A DNA stretch of 38,655 nucleotides from Smithellaceae bacterium (GTDB lineage: Bacteria > Desulfobacterota > Syntrophia > Syntrophales > Smithellaceae): positions 155,072-193,726 of the forward strand of contig JAUYFM010000064.1 in the NCBI GenBank assembly GCA_030690945.1. Reading direction: 5' to 3'. Shown one piece after another: positions 22,209-28,474 of the stretch; position 1 is the stretch's first letter, and each line of letters begins with the position of its first letter. Below the pieces are notes generated by a model. It did not search any database, was not told the origin of the DNA, and saw only the letters and a list, made by a program, of their open reading frames with translations. The translations under genes and the position numbers were made by a program.

Positions 22209-23510
22209 ATGAAAATTATTCGAGCCGACGCAACTGAATTTCGGGATTTTTTTCAAGGATTACGGCGGCGAGGCGGTGCGTTTACGCCGGAGCTGCTGGC
22301 AAACGTAGCCCAGATCATTCACGATGTTTCCGTGCGCGGCGATGAAGCGCTTTTTCATTATACCAAAAAGTTTGACGGCCACGACTTGACCGCGGCGACG
22401 CTCGAAGTAACAGACGCGGAAAGAAAAGAAGCGCTGGCCAAAGTAAAAACGCAGGACCGGGACGTGATCCGACTTGCCGCCCAGCGGATTGAAAAATATC
22501 ATCGTCACCAAATCGCTTCGGGATATTCGATTGTTGATGAAGACGGCGTGGAATTGGGTCAGCGGATACTGCCCTTGCAACGGGCAGGTATTTACGCGCC
22601 GGGCGGCAAGGCTTTTTATCCTTCCACGCTGCTGATGGCGGCCATTCCGGCGCGCATTGCAGGTGTCCAGGAAATCATCCTGGCAAGCCCCGTGAAAGAC
22701 GGTCAACTCAATCCGCTCATTGCCGCAGCAGCCGACGTCGCCCGAGTTGACCGCATCTTCAAGATCGGTGGCGCGCAGGCCATCGCCGCACTGGCCTATG
22801 GAACGCAAACTATTCCGCGCGTGGATAAAATTGTGGGACCGGGTAATGCCTATGTCGCCGCGGCCAAGAAACTCGTATTCGGACAGGTCGCCATTGATAT
22901 GATCGCCGGCCCCAGCGAAGTGGTGATCATTGCCGATCAAACCGCCAATCCCGCTTATGCGGCGGCGGATATGCTGGCGCAGGCCGAGCATGATGAAATG
23001 GCGGCGGCTGTTTTATTCACGCCCTATCCCGATCTGGCCTGCCGCGTGGCGGGAGAAATCGAAAAGCAGTTGCAGAAGCTCCCCAAGAAAGGGATCATTG
23101 AAAAATCTCTGGCTCAGTACGGCGCGATCATCATCACGTCCGACATCGGTCAGGCCGTGGAGCTGACCAATCTCTTCGCGCCGGAGCACCTGGAGCTGAT
23201 GGTGGAAAATCCGAAGGATATTTTAGAACAAATTCGCAACGCCGGTTCTGTATTCTTAGGGTCCTATACACCGGAAGCCCTGGGCGACTATATCGCCGGC
23301 GCCAATCACATTCTACCTACGGAAGGCACGGCACGGTTTTCATCCCCCCTGGGTGTTTATGATTTCTATAAGCGGATGAGCGTACTGTCTTTCTCCCAGA
23401 CGGCTTTCGAGAAGTTATCCGGACCAACACAGCATTTTGCCCAAATGGAAGGGCTGGAGGCACATGCCAATTCGGTGCGTGTGCGTAGCACACCCGATAA
23501 AGATGAGTGA
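22209..23510 (+). CDS. hisD: Histidinol dehydrogenase
   Basis: Last two oxidations of histidine synthesis, NAD- and Zn-dependent. 433 residues, normal length. Family segments seen: QRILPLQRAGIYAPGGKAFY, RIFKIGGAQAIAALAYGT, KIVGPGNAYVAAAKK, and DMIAGPSEV with the catalytic region AQAEHDEMAAAVLFT, then FAPEHLEL and ANHILPTEGTARFSS. Last gene of prmC-murA-hisD; no other his gene is nearby. Confidence 0.96.
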   Translation: MKIIRADATEFRDFFQGLRRRGGAFTPELLANVAQIIHDVSVRGDEALFHYTKKFDGHDLTAATLEVTDAERKEALAKVKTQDRDVIRLAAQRIEKYHRHQIASGYSIVDEDGVELGQRILPLQRAGIYAPGGKAFYPSTLLMAAIPARIAGVQEIILASPVKDGQLNPLIAAAADVARVDRIFKIGGAQAIAALAYGTQTIPRVDKIVGPGNAYVAAAKKLVFGQVAIDMIAGPSEVVIIADQTANPAYAAADMLAQAEHDEMAAAVLFTPYPDLACRVAGEIEKQLQKLPKKGIIEKSLAQYGAIIITSDIGQAVELTNLFAPEHLELMVENPKDILEQIRNAGSVFLGSYTPEALGDYIAGANHILPTEGTARFSSPLGVYDFYKRMSVLSFSQTAFEKLSGPTQHFAQMEGLEAHANSVRVRSTPDKDE

Positions 23511-23727
23511 ACGGATAGCGCTTAACCCTTTTCTCCTCTATTCACCGACCTATCACCTGATATTCTGGTAACCCAAAGTAATTAATGGTCGTGTTTGAGT
23601 ACTGCTTCCTGCTATACGTAACAAAACGTAAACCGTGATGAAAATGCATGATTTCAATTCGCAATAAACGCAATTCACACACTGCAAACATCGACACCAC
23701 ATCTCATATTTTGTGGTCTATATTTCA

Positions 23728-23756
23728 TTGACAAGCAAGGCCGACCGTCTTATAGT
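23728..23756 (+). promoter_or_regulatory. Strong sigma-70-type promoter of the accessory island
   Basis: TTGACA (23728-23733), 17-bp spacer, TATAGT (23751-23756), 25 bp before the ATG at 23781. The rest of the 270-bp gap after hisD (23511-23727) is AT-rich and shows no gene or terminator I can support. Confidence 0.7.
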
Positions 23757-23780
23757 TCAACGATATATAATCAAGGACTT

Positions 23781-25388
23781 ATGGATACTGAAATTTCAAT
23801 TAATATTGCAGCGCACAATAAGGGTATTCAGATTAAAGATGCTACAGGTTATGGTAGCCTGCATCCCATCCACATGGTGCCGTCCTCTCCAACTTTGAAA
23901 AATACATTCCTTACTAATTCTTTGAATTCGAGTCTTTTATCTCGCACGCTCCCGGAAATATTCCAAATAGTATCGCAACAGTATGATTATTTAAACGATG
24001 AAACCCAAGGTAGCATAAGCAGTCTTGAAATTCCTCAACACGATCTTAATCGACTCCGAGTGATTGCACTTTTCCCAGATGATCCGGCCGACGTTCTGCT
24101 CCATGTTGCTGTTGGTTATCTGCTGCAATCGGCTATAAGCGAGGAAGCATTTTCATGCATCCTTAATCACATAGCGTCAATATTGGGCTTTACTGACCGG
24201 TCTCAAATGACAATATCAGTTGGTGCTTTATCAGATGATCCTATTTTTACTGGTATACCACCCATAGTAATCACCGAGCTGCGGCTATCGCAAAACTCTA
24301 TGGGCACCGCTATAAATGGCGAAATCAAAACGATGATATGGGAGAATCTTACCTTATTGTCCGAGAGCAATATTGTCACTCGCTTAGGGTTTTCAATGCA
24401 AGGATTAAAAACCATACGGCAAGTTTTGTATCTCAAAGAGCAAGGGTTAGAATTAATGAAGACCCTATCAAAGGGCATACCAATAGAAACATATGGAAAT
24501 TTTGCAAAACTCATAGATGAGTTCCTGTGGAATCTGGTGAAGCGCGAGCGTGAAGGTCGGATTTTGAAGGGGCGCTTGGGATTACTCGATGGGCGGAAAT
24601 GGACGCTTGAAGAGTTGGGGGATCGTGAAAAAATTACCCGTGAACGTGTCCGGCAGATTGAAGAAAAACATATCTCAAAACTTCAGAAACCGAAAGCCCT
24701 TAGTCGTTTGGATAGGTTTTGGCATGCGGTCGATGATGTTCTTATTCCCAGGGGTGGTGTGTGCTGCGTACGTGAAATTGCTAACGCCTTGGGAAAACGC
24801 TGGGGATGGCGAAATCTTCCCTCTGACGCAGAACTTGCCTCTCTGATCGATTTGTCGCCACAATACGAGGTTGTTTGGAGTCTCCCGATTCGTGTAATCA
24901 TGCCTAAACATCAATGTGTGAGATGCCAAGCAATCCGACCAGCGATTGCAATATATGTTGAAAATCAGCCAGATGGGGTTTTGCCATTTGATGTCGCTAT
25001 TGTCAAGATTATGGAATTCTGTAGAAGCAAAGCTTGTTGCGACAAAGCTTCTTCAATTGTCCAGTTCTCAAAAGGTTATCTGCATTTTCTTGATGATGCT
25101 ATAGAAGAGATATTGGCAGATGAACTTGCGCTCTATACCCAATACGCATGGGCGCTTAAATATGGGAAGAAACGGACTCTACTTGTCGAAACAATCCTTT
25201 ACAAAGCTGGCAGACCAATGCATTTTACAGAAGTGCACGCGGCAGTTAATAAAGACCTACCTGAAGATGAGAAAATACCTGAGCGGAATATCTACGCTTA
25301 TATCGAGCGTTCACCAGACCTTCTTCTCTGGGATCGGGGAACATATATTCATCGCGGTCATATTTCAATCCCATATGGAGTACGATGA
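23781..25388 (+). CDS. Protein with alpha-CTD-like, sigma region 4-like and HARE-like HTH domains
   Basis: 535 residues, cytoplasmic. Residues ~164-230 resemble the RNA polymerase alpha C-terminal domain (helix-hairpin-helix pattern LSESNIVTRLGFSMQGLKTI). Residues ~262-305 are a clear sigma-70 region 4 helix-turn-helix (TLEELGDREKITRERVRQIE). A further winged-helix-like stretch (about 310-360) and a C-terminal domain at ~463-530 (RTLLVETILYKAGRPMHFTE) resemble HARE-type HTH. No sigma regions 2 or 3 are seen, so it is not a complete sigma factor. AAGGAC precedes the ATG. It lies 44 bp before an HNH nuclease gene and shares its AT-rich composition, so the two may work together. Role proposed: DNA recognition, perhaps of modified DNA. 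This is inference, as HARE domains are known partners of restriction enzymes. Confidence 0.85.
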   Translation: MDTEISINIAAHNKGIQIKDATGYGSLHPIHMVPSSPTLKNTFLTNSLNSSLLSRTLPEIFQIVSQQYDYLNDETQGSISSLEIPQHDLNRLRVIALFPDDPADVLLHVAVGYLLQSAISEEAFSCILNHIASILGFTDRSQMTISVGALSDDPIFTGIPPIVITELRLSQNSMGTAINGEIKTMIWENLTLLSESNIVTRLGFSMQGLKTIRQVLYLKEQGLELMKTLSKGIPIETYGNFAKLIDEFLWNLVKREREGRILKGRLGLLDGRKWTLEELGDREKITRERVRQIEEKHISKLQKPKALSRLDRFWHAVDDVLIPRGGVCCVREIANALGKRWGWRNLPSDAELASLIDLSPQYEVVWSLPIRVIMPKHQCVRCQAIRPAIAIYVENQPDGVLPFDVAIVKIMEFCRSKACCDKASSIVQFSKGYLHFLDDAIEEILADELALYTQYAWALKYGKKRTLLVETILYKAGRPMHFTEVHAAVNKDLPEDEKIPERNIYAYIERSPDLLLWDRGTYIHRGHISIPYGVR

Positions 25389-25432
25389 ATATATTATGAA
25401 ATTTATGGCCATGGAAGGAGAAGAAAATAGAG

Positions 25433-26305
25433 ATGCTGAATGATAAAGATGGCTTTCTTTATAAGAAGGAAGTTGACTGGTCGCTTCTCCATGAAGGATT
25501 CTCTATCCCTGTTGAGTTTCAGAAATCAGTCCAAGATCATGTCGGGATGGTCACGCGTGGTCAAAGTAAAAGGATACGATTTGCAATTAAGACAGCACTT
25601 TTTGATGCGCGAGTAATCAATCAACCATTTGACGAAAAGAAATATGTGGGACATCCCGATCTATTTCAAGTCAGATACGCCCCGACAAGCGGACTGGCAT
25701 TGAAGCTCCGTGAGATATTTGAGAAAAGCTATGCAGTCTTGAAACCGTTACGACATGACGCAAAAAAAGCTGAATGCAGGAAACAGGTGAGAGTTCCGGA
25801 AGGTGCGAGAGAATACCTTGTCCTTTATGCCGGAGCGGATGAGCATGAGATAGTTTGCGATTCTATCACATCCGATGATATGGCTGTCGTTCGGTCATTT
25901 GTGGAAAGCAAACATATTCGAGAAGAAGAATTCGAAGGAGCAGGCGAATACGACTTCACGGATTTAAGTGCAAGAATAGAAACACGCGAGCAGGTGGTTA
26001 GGATTCGACGACTTGACAGGTCGATTGGTGAGAGCCTAAAGAGACTTTATAAATATCGCTGTCAGATATGTTCAGAAAACTTTGGAAAAGAGAGAGGGGT
26101 TGATACGGCAGAATCGCATCATATCGAGGCTTTTGTGAAATCTCTTAACAATGATTCGGAAAACCTCTTGGTCGTTTGCCCAAACCATCATACGGTAATT
26201 CACAAAGCGCAACCCGTTTTCGACGGACGACGGCTGACCTTTGCGTATCCCAATGGTTTCGAGGAAAGACTTCAATTGAACACACACTTGAAAAGATTGC
26301 GATGA
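25433..26305 (+). CDS. HNH endonuclease
   Basis: 290 residues. The C-terminal HNH domain has Cys pair C210/C213, the core SHHIEAF with H229-H230, and ENLLVVCPNHHTVIH with N244, C249, H252-H253 and H257, so both the nuclease and the structural zinc site look intact. The N-terminal ~190 residues are unfamiliar and probably hold the DNA-binding or specificity domain. GGAGAAG lies before the ATG. Cotranscription with the preceding HTH protein is likely. No methyltransferase is encoded next to it, so a modification-dependent or phage-triggered nuclease is more likely than a classic restriction-modification enzyme (inference). Confidence 0.88.
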   Translation: MLNDKDGFLYKKEVDWSLLHEGFSIPVEFQKSVQDHVGMVTRGQSKRIRFAIKTALFDARVINQPFDEKKYVGHPDLFQVRYAPTSGLALKLREIFEKSYAVLKPLRHDAKKAECRKQVRVPEGAREYLVLYAGADEHEIVCDSITSDDMAVVRSFVESKHIREEEFEGAGEYDFTDLSARIETREQVVRIRRLDRSIGESLKRLYKYRCQICSENFGKERGVDTAESHHIEAFVKSLNNDSENLLVVCPNHHTVIHKAQPVFDGRRLTFAYPNGFEERLQLNTHLKRLR

Positions 26306-26373
26306 TAACCATTCTAATTTTTCGATGAAGTAATAGGGTTTAAATTAATTGATATCGTCCGTAATCACTGGCG

Positions 26374-27393
26374 TTGCTGTGGTCTGGTCTTGAAAAATCT
26401 GTTTTCAGTTACCGAAGAATAGAACCATGTTTTAATGCTTATCTACCACTCCGCCGACAGATACACCTCATCGAAGAGTTGTATGGTGAAAAACGTGATT
26501 TGATCTTATTGGACAACAATGTTCTAGCATCGGAAAGATTCAAAGATATTATAAAAGATATCAAGGCATTGGGATTTGGAAAAGGATCAACCTATACATA
26601 TCAGAATAAATCAGGACGAACAAGCACAGTGAAACGCTACATTGACTTCAACCAGGGGTTGGATGCGCGTTTGCTTACAGAAGAAAAAATTGCTTTATTG
26701 AGTGAGATCGCAATTCGTCCTATTCGAATTGCGTTTGACCATATTGGCCTCCGTAGCCTGTACGAAGAAAAGGTTAGGTTGGCGGCCAAATACGGTCTTG
26801 ACCACCTGTCAAATTATATTCTCTATAACTTTCATGATCACCCTAACGATTTTTACGACCGGTTGAAGATCAACCTTGATCTCAACGAGGAGCTTAAATT
26901 GCAGATCTTTTCCTTTCCCATGAGATATGTGGACTTGCAGAGCAAGAATCGTCTTTCAAAGACACCTGGCAACATAGGTGAACATTGGAATGCGAAGTAC
27001 CTTCGAACGATTCAATGTGTCTTGTTGAGGACGCGTGGAGTTGTTGGCACCAAACGGGATTATTTCTTAAAGGCTTTCGGTAAAGATCATGAGGAGTTTC
27101 ATAAAATTCTGCTCATGCCCGAATCTTATATTATTCATCGATATAAACATGAAGGTGATGGTTCTACCAACAGATGGTGGGAACAAGTATGTTCACTATC
27201 CGATTGGGAACAAGATATCTTCAAGCATATCATTCATAATCATCTTTTCCGCACTGTAAATCGTACGGAATTAACGCGTGCAGTAAAAGATGTCCTTGAT
27301 CATTATATGGAGCGAGATGACCGAAAAAGAATTTCTTTTAGTGGCGTCCCCAAAAAGGTTTGCGTGGAGTCGAATATTTTCCTCTCTCATTAG
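26374..27393 (+). pseudogene. Radical-SAM-like protein lacking its N-terminal Cys-cluster part
   Basis: 339 codons open from a TTG at 26374; the nearest upstream stop in frame is at 26362. The product matches the middle and end of a radical SAM family: LILLDNNVLASERFKDII, DFNQGLDARLLTEEKIALLS, RPIRIAFDHIGL, GLDHLSNYILYNFHDHPNDF, IFSFPMRYVDL. The family's N-terminal part with the CxxxCxxC cluster motif is missing. Where that motif should end, just before RRIEP, the sequence reads SVFS, as if both Cys had become Ser. It has no ribosome site. I read it as a gene cut at the island junction, though a catalytically dead protein is possible because the frame is still open. Confidence 0.65.
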
Positions 27394-27660
27394 CAATGTT
27401 TGATACCACAGTTCGAGTGACAATCCGCACCTAAATCCCAAGTTGAAAGTTGCTCATTTGTAGATGAAATAAATGGCCAGACCTTTTTTTCAGTACCCTG
27501 CCTTTGATTGATTTCAAATCCACTAACCCTCTAAAATCCTTCGACAAGGCACAAAAAGTGAGAAGTCAGGAATAGTTTTAATCTTGTAAGTTACAGCAAA
27601 AAAGGTATCCCAAAGACACGAGTTCCACCAGAAGCAGTAGAGGGAAGAAGGCTTCAAAAT

Positions 27661-27705
27661 AAATGACAGATCCATCACTTACAAACGGTGATGGATCTGT
27701 CATTT
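27661..27705. terminator. Perfect 18-bp inverted repeat between convergent genes
   Basis: AAATGACAGATCCATCAC (27661-27678) and its exact reverse complement (27688-27705), with a 9-nt loop. It lies between the plus-strand island and the minus-strand isomerase gene and could terminate in both directions, though the T-run is only three bases. The rest of the 370-bp gap (27394-27763) shows no gene I can support. Confidence 0.5.
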
Positions 27706-27763
27706 CATGAGACGTTAGGAGAATCCTTTCTGCTTTAGATTTCCTATTCAATATTAAGATTAA

Positions 27764-28474
27764 TCAAACATAGAAGCGCCCGGACTCTATAATCGGCGGA
27801 TCATCATGCTCTATCGCGTAAACAACATCCTTGTTCAATTCCTCTTTGATGGCGGCAACAATCACTCGTCTCTTGTTCTGGAGTTTGGCAAAATTCATGA
27901 CCTCTTCCATCAACTGATCGATGTGGCAGGCTTTGGTAATGATATGATGATCCTCGCATTCCTGCGCTGTGAGACGTTTTCCGGTGATAATCATTTCTTC
28001 GAGTTTGTAACGCGGGATAGCCTTTCTCATCGCCGTGAGCATGCCCGGCAGAAACGGAATGCCCAGGTCGACTTCCGGAAAGCACATAAAGCCGCGATCC
28101 GACCGCATGAAACGAAAATCAAAGTAGCAGGACAGAATCGCGCCGCCGGCGAAGGCATGCCCGGTAAGGGCTACAATCGTGGGCATCGGATACAGTAGAA
28201 TTCTTTTAAAAAGTCCCATCATCGTATCGATAAACTTTTTGGCCGTGGCCTGATCATTTTTCTGCATGATCGGCAGCAGCCACTCCAGATCGATTCCATT
28301 GCTGAAGATTTTTTCATGCGCGCCGCGCACGACCAGGACATTGGCATCCGTTTCTTTTTCCACATGATCCAGGGCGTCCATAAATTTCTCCAGGAAATCC
28401 AGATTCAAACGATTTTCCCCTTCATTCAACGTCACAACGGCCACTTGGCCTTCCATCTTGATTTCAATCGGCAT
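27764..28474 (-). CDS. Enoyl-CoA hydratase/isomerase family protein, probably an isomerase
   Basis: 236 residues of the crotonase fold. The oxyanion-hole segment GHAFAGGAILS is at 105-115. Of the two Glu of classic hydratases, the second is present (E134 in FPEVDLG), while the first position, after the GG, is Ile (I113). The pattern DFRFMRSDRGFMCFPEVDLG is like eukaryotic peroxisomal delta3-delta2-enoyl-CoA isomerases. It therefore more likely shifts a double bond than adds water. Same strand and 123 bp downstream of an SDR gene, so the two may serve one acyl-CoA pathway. Confidence 0.88.
   Translation of the reverse strand: MPIEIKMEGQVAVVTLNEGENRLNLDFLEKFMDALDHVEKETDANVLVVRGAHEKIFSNGIDLEWLLPIMQKNDQATAKKFIDTMMGLFKRILLYPMPTIVALTGHAFAGGAILSCYFDFRFMRSDRGFMCFPEVDLGIPFLPGMLTAMRKAIPRYKLEEMIITGKRLTAQECEDHHIITKACHIDQLMEEVMNFAKLQNKRRVIVAAIKEELNKDVVYAIEHDDPPIIESGRFYV

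What the first reader, a model, noticed from the sequence alone, without database searches (positions are those of the whole stretch)
23728..26305. Two-gene island: alpha-CTD/sigma4/HARE-like protein plus HNH nuclease
Seen: a strong promoter, then a 535-residue protein combining an alpha-CTD-like helix-hairpin-helix, an unmistakable sigma region 4 HTH without other sigma regions, and a HARE-like C-terminal HTH. An intact HNH nuclease follows 44 bp later. The pair sits between housekeeping genes in more AT-rich sequence. Known: HARE-type HTHs are linked to restriction enzymes and DNA-modification sensing. Inference: a defence system in which transcription-factor-like domains recognise DNA, or the host or phage RNA polymerase state, and recruit or control the nuclease.
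Basis: partly seen in the sequence, partly recalled or inferred. Interest (0 to 1): 0.8.

Follow-up and report, generated by a model that had tools for sequence, protein, structure and literature searches.

The report
Broken relic of Pbe-type phage defence
The two genes are what is left of a larger bacterial virus-defence operon whose core was lost and replaced by an unrelated nuclease gene; intact relatives show that some of these systems carry an extra protein built from the promoter-reading parts of RNA polymerase.

Summary
The ORFs exist as described. ORF1 has a genuine sigma-70 region 4 with the -35-reading helix intact; a HARE-like winged helix is supported by an AlphaFold model and sub-threshold matches. 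The HNH motif is intact; the promoter is the window's only site of at least 11/12.

The "two-gene defence system" does not hold. ORF1 is the middle of a longer protein, cut at both ends; the recognisable alpha-CTD lies in the missing part. Intact relatives (L005, L008) form a six-gene operon: alpha-CTD/sigma4/HARE-like protein, PbeA (HKD nuclease-helicase), small PbeB-like protein, CxC ATPase, DndE-like protein, radical SAM. In the window the core is gone and 1 kb with the HNH gene stands in its place. Relatives of this HNH protein were found at 0 of 11 other sigma4 loci.

The family is the interesting part: region-4 proteins, usually with alpha-CTD, lie at 9 of 22 PbeA loci inspected, often overlapping the PbeA start. 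I saw no description of this in the passages I could read. I infer a DNA-reading subunit of Pbe/CxC defence; the window copy is a relic.

The parts
23512..27758 (.). AT-rich island between hisD and an enoyl-CoA hydratase-like gene
   Evidence: In a congeneric genome (G435, L048) the two blocks of homology flanking the island are about 97 bp apart; GC and GC3 drop inside. Boundaries accurate to about 20 bp.
23728..23756 (+). sigma-70 promoter-like site TTGACA-N17-TATAGT
   Evidence: the window's only site of at least 11/12. No site above 9/12 upstream of 9 homologous genes.
23781..25388 (+). ORF1: middle fragment of an alpha-CTD/sigma4/HARE-like protein, truncated at both ends
   Evidence: DNA homology to L004 covers 23790-25374 at 86% and then stops; alignment A1.
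24546..24689 (+). sigma region 4 (residues 256-303), with recognition-helix motif TRERVRQIE at residues 286-294
   Evidence: model residues about 5-87 match sigmaA region 4 structures.
24768..24905 (+). first winged-helix-like unit (residues 330-375), inferred from a predicted H-H-E-E pattern
   Evidence: Secondary structure of model m2557e4cc12df; not matched separately.
25152..25358 (+). HARE-like winged helix (residues 458-526)
   Evidence: PF05066 E 0.023, below cut-off; winged-helix matches at Z about 7.
25433..26305 (+). ORF2: HNH endonuclease with intact motif; the first 150 or so residues match nothing found
   Evidence: ribosome-binding-site-like GGAAGGAG just upstream (sequence).
26374..27393 (+). 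radical SAM remnant: C-terminal part only (from residue 159 of 463), CxxxCxxC missing
   Evidence: 76% identity to L008 over 305 residues, starting at 26398; no CxxxCxxC in any frame of 26301-27760.
27661..27705 (.). perfect 18-bp inverted repeat, 9-nt loop, downstream of the remnant

Best explanation
The island is a broken copy of a CxC-ATPase/DndE (Pbe-type) anti-invader operon of a particular variant. In intact relatives the first gene encodes a large protein with an alpha-CTD-like domain, sigma-70 region 4 and HARE-like winged helices; it overlaps the start of PbeA and is followed by a small PbeB-like protein, the CxC ATPase, a DndE/PbeD-like protein and a radical SAM protein. In the window about 6.6 kb (end of the sigma4 gene, PbeA, B, C, D, start of the radical SAM gene) is missing, and a 1-kb segment with an HNH gene stands there. 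Inferred, not shown: in intact systems the alpha-CTD/sigma4 protein reads promoter-like DNA (UP element and -35) or engages RNA polymerase, and delivers the PbeA nuclease-helicase and the DndE-ATPase scanner to invading DNA. The window copy cannot do this; at most the HNH gene, read from the strong promoter, still acts on its own. That the break is recent is also inferred.
For: Intact loci L005 and L008, with a conserved small protein of 58 and 65 residues between PbeA and PbeC. PADLOC names for L005: PbeA E 1.6e-223, PbeC 3.7e-171, PbeD 1.9e-5. By pattern, HKD motif in 8 of 8 PbeA and CxC in 7 of 8 PbeC proteins checked. Window homology is limited to the middle of the first gene and the end of the last, with no PbeA, C or D remnant. 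Near-empty site in a congener. Sigma4 motif in open frames of 742-1310 codons at 9 of 22 PbeA loci; the gene overlaps the PbeA start in 6 of 8 loci measured. TRER[VI]RQ[IV][ED] in 12 of 12 members, though most members were found through region 4 itself. Model of window residues 230-535 (mean pLDDT 70.2) matches a sigmaA region 4-beta-flap chimera at Z 9.1 (96 residues, 3.0 A) and plain sigmaA region 4 at Z about 7. Changes at outgroup-conserved sites: 14 in the window copy, 7 in L004.
Against: All three window ORFs are still open. dN/dS for window-L004 is 0.106/0.331 (0.32), below 1, and 14 against 7 is a weak imbalance. L004 is itself truncated at its C-terminus, so it is a poor yardstick. 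Only two intact loci with the radical SAM gene were seen, one of them from a named MAG, both in one phylum. The sigma4 motif is absent from 13 of 22 PbeA loci, so the gene is optional. Two of the nine positives (L028, L029) were picked because a sigma4 search had hit them, and the genome PbeA search used the L008 PbeA as query. The Arthrobacter locus (L026) has PbeA and PbeC split over frames and may be decayed. By pattern, Walker A is missing from 2 of 8 PbeC, DExH from 1 of 8 PbeA and CxC from 1 of 8 PbeC. Similarity of the window family to the Ruegeria and Rhizobium proteins is confined to region 4 and, for Ruegeria, the HARE-like stretch. No experiment bears on function.
Confidence: 0.75

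Rival explanations
1. The three short genes are a streamlined working system: the shortened sigma4/winged-helix protein binds DNA and directs the HNH nuclease.
For: Open frames, unique strong promoter, ribosome-binding-site-like sequence, 44-bp spacing, intact HNH motif, dN/dS below 1. HNH genes occur at two other Pbe loci, without sigma4 (L021, L062).
Against: Relatives of this HNH protein at 0 of 11 other sigma4 loci and in 0 of 389 other genomes of the phylum sample; radical SAM remnant has lost its cluster cysteines; ORF1 ends abruptly on both sides relative to its relatives.
Confidence: 0.1
2. The HNH gene is an independent newcomer (solitary restriction or selfish nuclease) that landed in, or caused, the deletion and is the only live gene of the island; ORF1 survives as its leader. 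Compatible with the best explanation.
For: Foreign composition, own ribosome-binding-site-like sequence, intact motif; its 1-kb segment stands where the operon core would be.
Against: No full-length relative found, so neither mobility nor a restriction function can be shown.
Confidence: 0.5
3. The sigma4 proteins are transcriptional regulators of their own operon, not part of the effector complex.
For: Region 4 and alpha-CTD are promoter-binding modules (established; structures on -35 and UP DNA among the matches). The window gene has a consensus -35 upstream.
Against: No site above 9/12 upstream of 9 homologous genes. Proteins of about 730-1,310 residues, mostly overlapping the PbeA start, look more like complex subunits. 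Sigma region 2 not found.
Confidence: 0.2

Closest known systems
PbeABCD / CxC ABC-ATPase-DndE systems (PMC6459918 passages; PMC10853773 abstract, passages, section 16)
   Same: PbeA, small PbeB-like, CxC ATPase PbeC and DndE-like PbeD in the same order in the intact relatives L005 and L008; dnd genes alongside in Ruegeria, Pontibrevibacter and two Rhizobium loci
   Different: Extra alpha-CTD/sigma4/HARE-like protein; radical SAM gene in L005 and L008; no DndC in the four genomes tested; window copy lacks the core
MzaA of the MZA anti-phage system
   Same: Best NCBIfam hit of ORF1 by E-value (54.4 bits), through region 4
   Different: Far below its 800-bit cut-off; about 80 residues match; MZA partner genes were not searched for
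PglW of type 2 BREX (PMC12839542, passages)
   Same: Alpha-CTD-like domain followed by winged helices in a defence protein; weak match to the sigma4 segment (E 0.016-0.02)
   Different: PglW is a kinase with a C-terminal sensor; no kinase matched here
DndH variant with an inserted sigma-factor-related HTH (PMC10853773, passage)
   Same: Sigma-type HTH in a Dnd-linked protein
   Different: DndH carries REase and HerA/FtsK domains
Phosphorothioate-binding HNH endonucleases (NF045808)
   Same: HNH domain similarity of ORF2 (18.2 bits, residues 190-256)
   Different: Cut-off 180 bits; only the HNH part matches

Membership tests
CxC/Pbe system (window locus) | PbeA, CxC ATPase and DndE/PbeD genes present | tested here: not met
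   No remnant in 23401-27900 (best E 0.1, chance level); no PbeA match in the genome at E 1e-60
CxC/Pbe system (relatives L005, L008) | PbeA with HKD motif and helicase | tested here: met
   (L005)
CxC/Pbe system (relatives L005, L008) | CxC hook ABC ATPase | tested here: met
   PDLC02730 E 3.7e-171 (L005); CICG in both
CxC/Pbe system (relatives L005, L008) | DndE/PbeD protein | tested here: met
   L005: TIGR04062 E 2.7e-5, below its cut-off; PbeD E 1.9e-5; L008 protein 68% identical
CxC/Pbe system (relatives L005, L008) | small protein (PbeB) between PbeA and PbeC | tested here: met
   58- and 65-residue ORFs, alike by eye, overlapping both neighbours; homology to other PbeB proteins not tested
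CxC/Pbe system (relatives L005, L008) | phosphorothioation enzyme DndC in the genome | tested here: not met
   0 of 4 genomes; not obligatory: PMC6459918 reports 320 of 553 PbeAC without dndCD nearby (passage)
sigma factor | region 2 besides region 4 | tested here: not met
   Of sigma domains only Sigma70_r4 found in Pfam
HARE-HTH | match above the Pfam gathering score | tested here: not met
   Best 18.0 bits against 25.9; winged-helix fold supported
MZA system (MzaA) | NF041931 equivalog cut-off | tested here: not met
   54.4 of 800 bits
radical SAM enzyme (window 26374-27393) | CxxxCxxC cluster motif | tested here: not met
   Absent from all frames of 26301-27760; present in L005 and L008
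HNH endonuclease (ORF2) | PF01844 above cut-off | tested here: met
   24.1 bits against 21.4
Anti-phage activity | protection against phage | not testable with these tools
   Needs a plaque assay

The most novel reading that the evidence does not exclude
A branch of Pbe/CxC defence systems carries a mimic of the RNA polymerase promoter-reading apparatus: alpha-CTD (UP element) and sigma region 4 (-35 element) fused to modified-DNA-type winged helices and co-translated with a nuclease-helicase. The complex would find invading DNA by its promoters, or by RNA polymerase firing on it. In the L005/L008 branch a radical SAM enzyme, related to one found beside DGQHR proteins on alphaproteobacterial plasmids, would supply a self-mark in place of phosphorothioation.
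Probability: 0.15. Interest if true: 0.8.

Novelty: new variant of a known kind. Interest (0 to 1): 0.5.

Why it matters
How Pbe/CxC systems choose their target is open: viral DNA is not visibly cut (PMC6459918), and later authors dispute the mechanism (PMC10853773). A recurrent protein made of promoter-reading domains gives a concrete, testable answer: they may look for promoters. It also joins a scattered theme of sigma4-like or alpha-CTD-like modules in MzaA, PglW and a DndH variant. The window locus itself matters little; it is a relic that pointed to the family.

Tried and rejected
HNH as part of the system: rejected. tblastn of ORF2 against 19 loci (11 with sigma4, 8 without) gave only a weak HNH-domain match in L021; against 8 further PbeA loci only one in L062 (E 0.048). 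No full-length relative in plasmids, phages, viral contigs or the phylum sample.

Autoregulation through a shared promoter: not supported.

First AlphaFold job (full L008 protein, four rows) was too poor to use (pLDDT 39). Profile search of the HARE-like segment against solved structures gave nothing credible. Foldseek gave no match at E 0.001 or better, although its 25 best rows were all sigma region 4. PF05066 was found in 0 of 21 near genomes. The family was not found in viral contigs or phages, the island DNA not in the E. coli set; on plasmids the window protein found nothing and the L005 protein only short matches to sigma region 4. The radical SAM protein has no sequence relative among solved structures at E 0.1. 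tRNA as insertion site: none in the window.

Not in print, as far as searched: with passages of PMC10853773 (also section 16), PMC6459918, PMC12839542, PMC12707154 and PMC3226654. Figures and supplements were not read, and two papers I recalled as central (2012 HARE-HTH, 2020 ABC-ATPase classification) are not held, so the sigma4 gene may already appear in print. NCBI annotation already names it 'sigma factor-like helix-turn-helix DNA-binding protein'.

Full report
What is there. ORF1 (23781-25388) and ORF2 (25433-26305) are open and 44 bp apart. ORF1 carries sigma-70 region 4; in Pfam nothing else passes its cut-off, and the better hits in the other libraries also rest on region 4. ORF2 has an HNH domain above the Pfam cut-off. 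A third ORF, 26374-27393, matches a phage-library radical SAM family (E 6e-21). GC3 of the three is 0.38-0.40 against 0.59-0.62 in the flanking genes (murA and hisD are named from recall of their sequences, the enoyl-CoA hydratase-like gene). The promoter at 23728 is the only site of at least 11/12 in the window, although weaker promoter-like sites are no more frequent than chance.

The island. In a congeneric genome (G435, L048) the blocks of homology on either side of the island are about 97 bp apart. Another congener (G438) has about 2.7 kb of other content at the place and G424 about 1.1 kb, so the site takes varied inserts. In three further congeners fetched, the right flank was not found within the stretch.

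Relatives. A search of 155 genomes of the order gave two besides the window: G511, apparently the genome of L004 (same coordinates), and G490 (L053). Aligned with them, ORF1 is the middle of a longer protein. It lacks the N-terminal part with the alpha-CTD (PF03118, E 9e-9 in L008, 4e-5 in L005) and everything after the HARE-like unit. DNA identity to L004 is 86% over 23790-25374 and then stops. L004 itself is cut near its C-terminus; in its genome no radical SAM relative (E 1e-10) and only weak TIGR04095 helicase matches (best E 3e-7) were found.

The intact operon. L005 and L008 hold, in order: the first gene (1,308 or 1,131 aa); a PLD/HKD plus SF2 helicase protein; a small protein (58 or 65 aa) overlapping both neighbours; a DndD-like ATPase; a 153-154-residue protein; a 463-480-residue radical SAM protein. 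PADLOC names the L005 helicase, ATPase and 154-residue protein PbeA (E 1.6e-223), PbeC (3.7e-171) and PbeD (1.9e-5); the L008 proteins are 68-77% identical to them. The HKD motif and the CICG hook are present. In the window no PbeA, C or D remains, and the radical SAM remnant begins at residue 159, just at the end of the CxxxCxxC motif. A stretch of 6,568 bp in L008 (5632-12199) corresponds to 1,023 bp in the window, which carry the HNH gene.

How general. I inspected 22 PbeA loci: 17 of the 29 plasmid records, and the 5 genomes found among 390. A region-4 recognition motif in a long open frame is present in 9 of 22: 5 of 17 plasmids (Ruegeria, Pontibrevibacter, two Rhizobium, Arthrobacter) and 4 of 5 genomes. 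The two Rhizobium loci had been picked because a sigma4 search hit them, so 5 of 17 is generous; without them it is 3 of 15. Ruegeria and Pontibrevibacter (72% identical) and the two Rhizobium (85%) are close pairs, L005 and L008 are 48% identical: six or seven lineages in all. An Aurantiacibacter locus has a gene annotated the same way but without the motif. Of seven of these nine proteins scanned, six match the alpha-CTD at E below 0.001 and four (L008, L060, L061, L026) pass the cut-off; L028 shows none. The gene overlaps the PbeA start in 6 of 8 loci measured and lies about 207 bp upstream in the two Rhizobium; in L061 it lies downstream of PbeA and PbeC. In L026 PbeA and PbeC are split over frames. 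Ruegeria, Pontibrevibacter and Rhizobium carry dnd genes alongside. Thirteen loci lack the motif; most of these look like ordinary Pbe clusters from their annotation, one plasmid record is unannotated and L059 was read from its ORFs.

Structure. A model of window residues 230-535 from five rows has mean pLDDT 70.2 (80-95 over region 4, 73-89 over the HARE-like unit). The region-4 part matches sigmaA region 4, including region 4 on -35 DNA and the alpha-CTD/region 4/DNA complex, though no Foldseek E-value reaches 0.001. Z is 9.1 for a sigmaA region 4-beta-flap chimera and about 7 for plain region 4. Residues 458-526 match various winged helices at Z about 7, a level the tool warns may be only a common arrangement. 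The recognition helix reads TRERVRQIE, and the pattern is kept in 12 of 12 members, most of which were found through region 4; that these residues read the -35 element is recalled from work on sigma-70.

Selection. dN 0.106 and dS 0.331 between the window and L004 give 0.32; at columns conserved in L005 and L008 the window has 14 private changes and L004 7. For the radical SAM part, private changes are 31 (window), 23 (L005) and 20 (L008). This fits a recent break with mild relaxation but does not prove it.

Mechanism. Shown: genetic association, motif integrity, domain order. Inferred: the alpha-CTD/region 4 protein is the DNA-reading or RNA-polymerase-engaging subunit that brings PbeA to target DNA. 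In the window this machine is gone; whether the HNH gene does anything is unknown. HNH genes are seen at two other Pbe loci, without sigma4 (L021, L062), but with only weak likeness to ORF2.

Radical SAM. The same family (39-42% identity) sits on Rhizobium, Novosphingobium and Roseomonas plasmids between a DGQHR protein and an ATP-binding protein, in the 3 loci read of 12 with at least 80% cover. The Rhizobium DGQHR protein resembles DpdB (E 1.5e-17). No DndC is found in the four genomes tested. A modification role is a guess.

Literature. PMC6459918 (passages) gives PbeB as a 66-residue protein. PMC10853773 (abstract, passages and section 16) describes the CxC-DndE systems and, in the passages found, mentions a sigma-type HTH only in a DndH variant. 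PMC12839542 (passages) describes alpha-CTD-like and winged-helix units in PglW. I saw no description of the sigma4 gene beside PbeA in these texts; figures and supplements were not seen.

Verdict. The locus is a relic; the family it reveals is a new variant of a known kind of defence system.

Noticed in passing
window 23512-27758; L047-L052: The interval between hisD and the enoyl-CoA hydratase-like gene differs among congeners (about 97 bp in G435, 2.7 kb in G438, 1.1 kb in G424), so it looks like an insertion hotspot.
   Followed up: partly
L009, L010, L011: Radical SAM protein of the same family between a DGQHR protein and an ATP-binding protein on Rhizobium, Novosphingobium and Roseomonas plasmids: a possible unnamed DNA-modification cassette.
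   Followed up: partly
L004:7752-10430: A second relic: the sigma4 gene of a Syntrophaceae MAG loses homology near its C-terminus shortly before the contig end.
   Followed up: partly
L061:2172-5318 (- strand): Sigma4 protein with two alpha-CTD stretches (PF03118, E 7e-21) downstream of PbeA and PbeC, the clearest alpha-CTD case of the family.
   Followed up: partly
L060:8088-10820: The sigma4 protein of this locus starts with Sel1 repeats; the PbeA match beside it has one TAA inside.
   Followed up: no
window 27661-27705: Perfect 18-bp inverted repeat with a 9-nt loop downstream of the radical SAM remnant, possibly a terminator.
   Followed up: no
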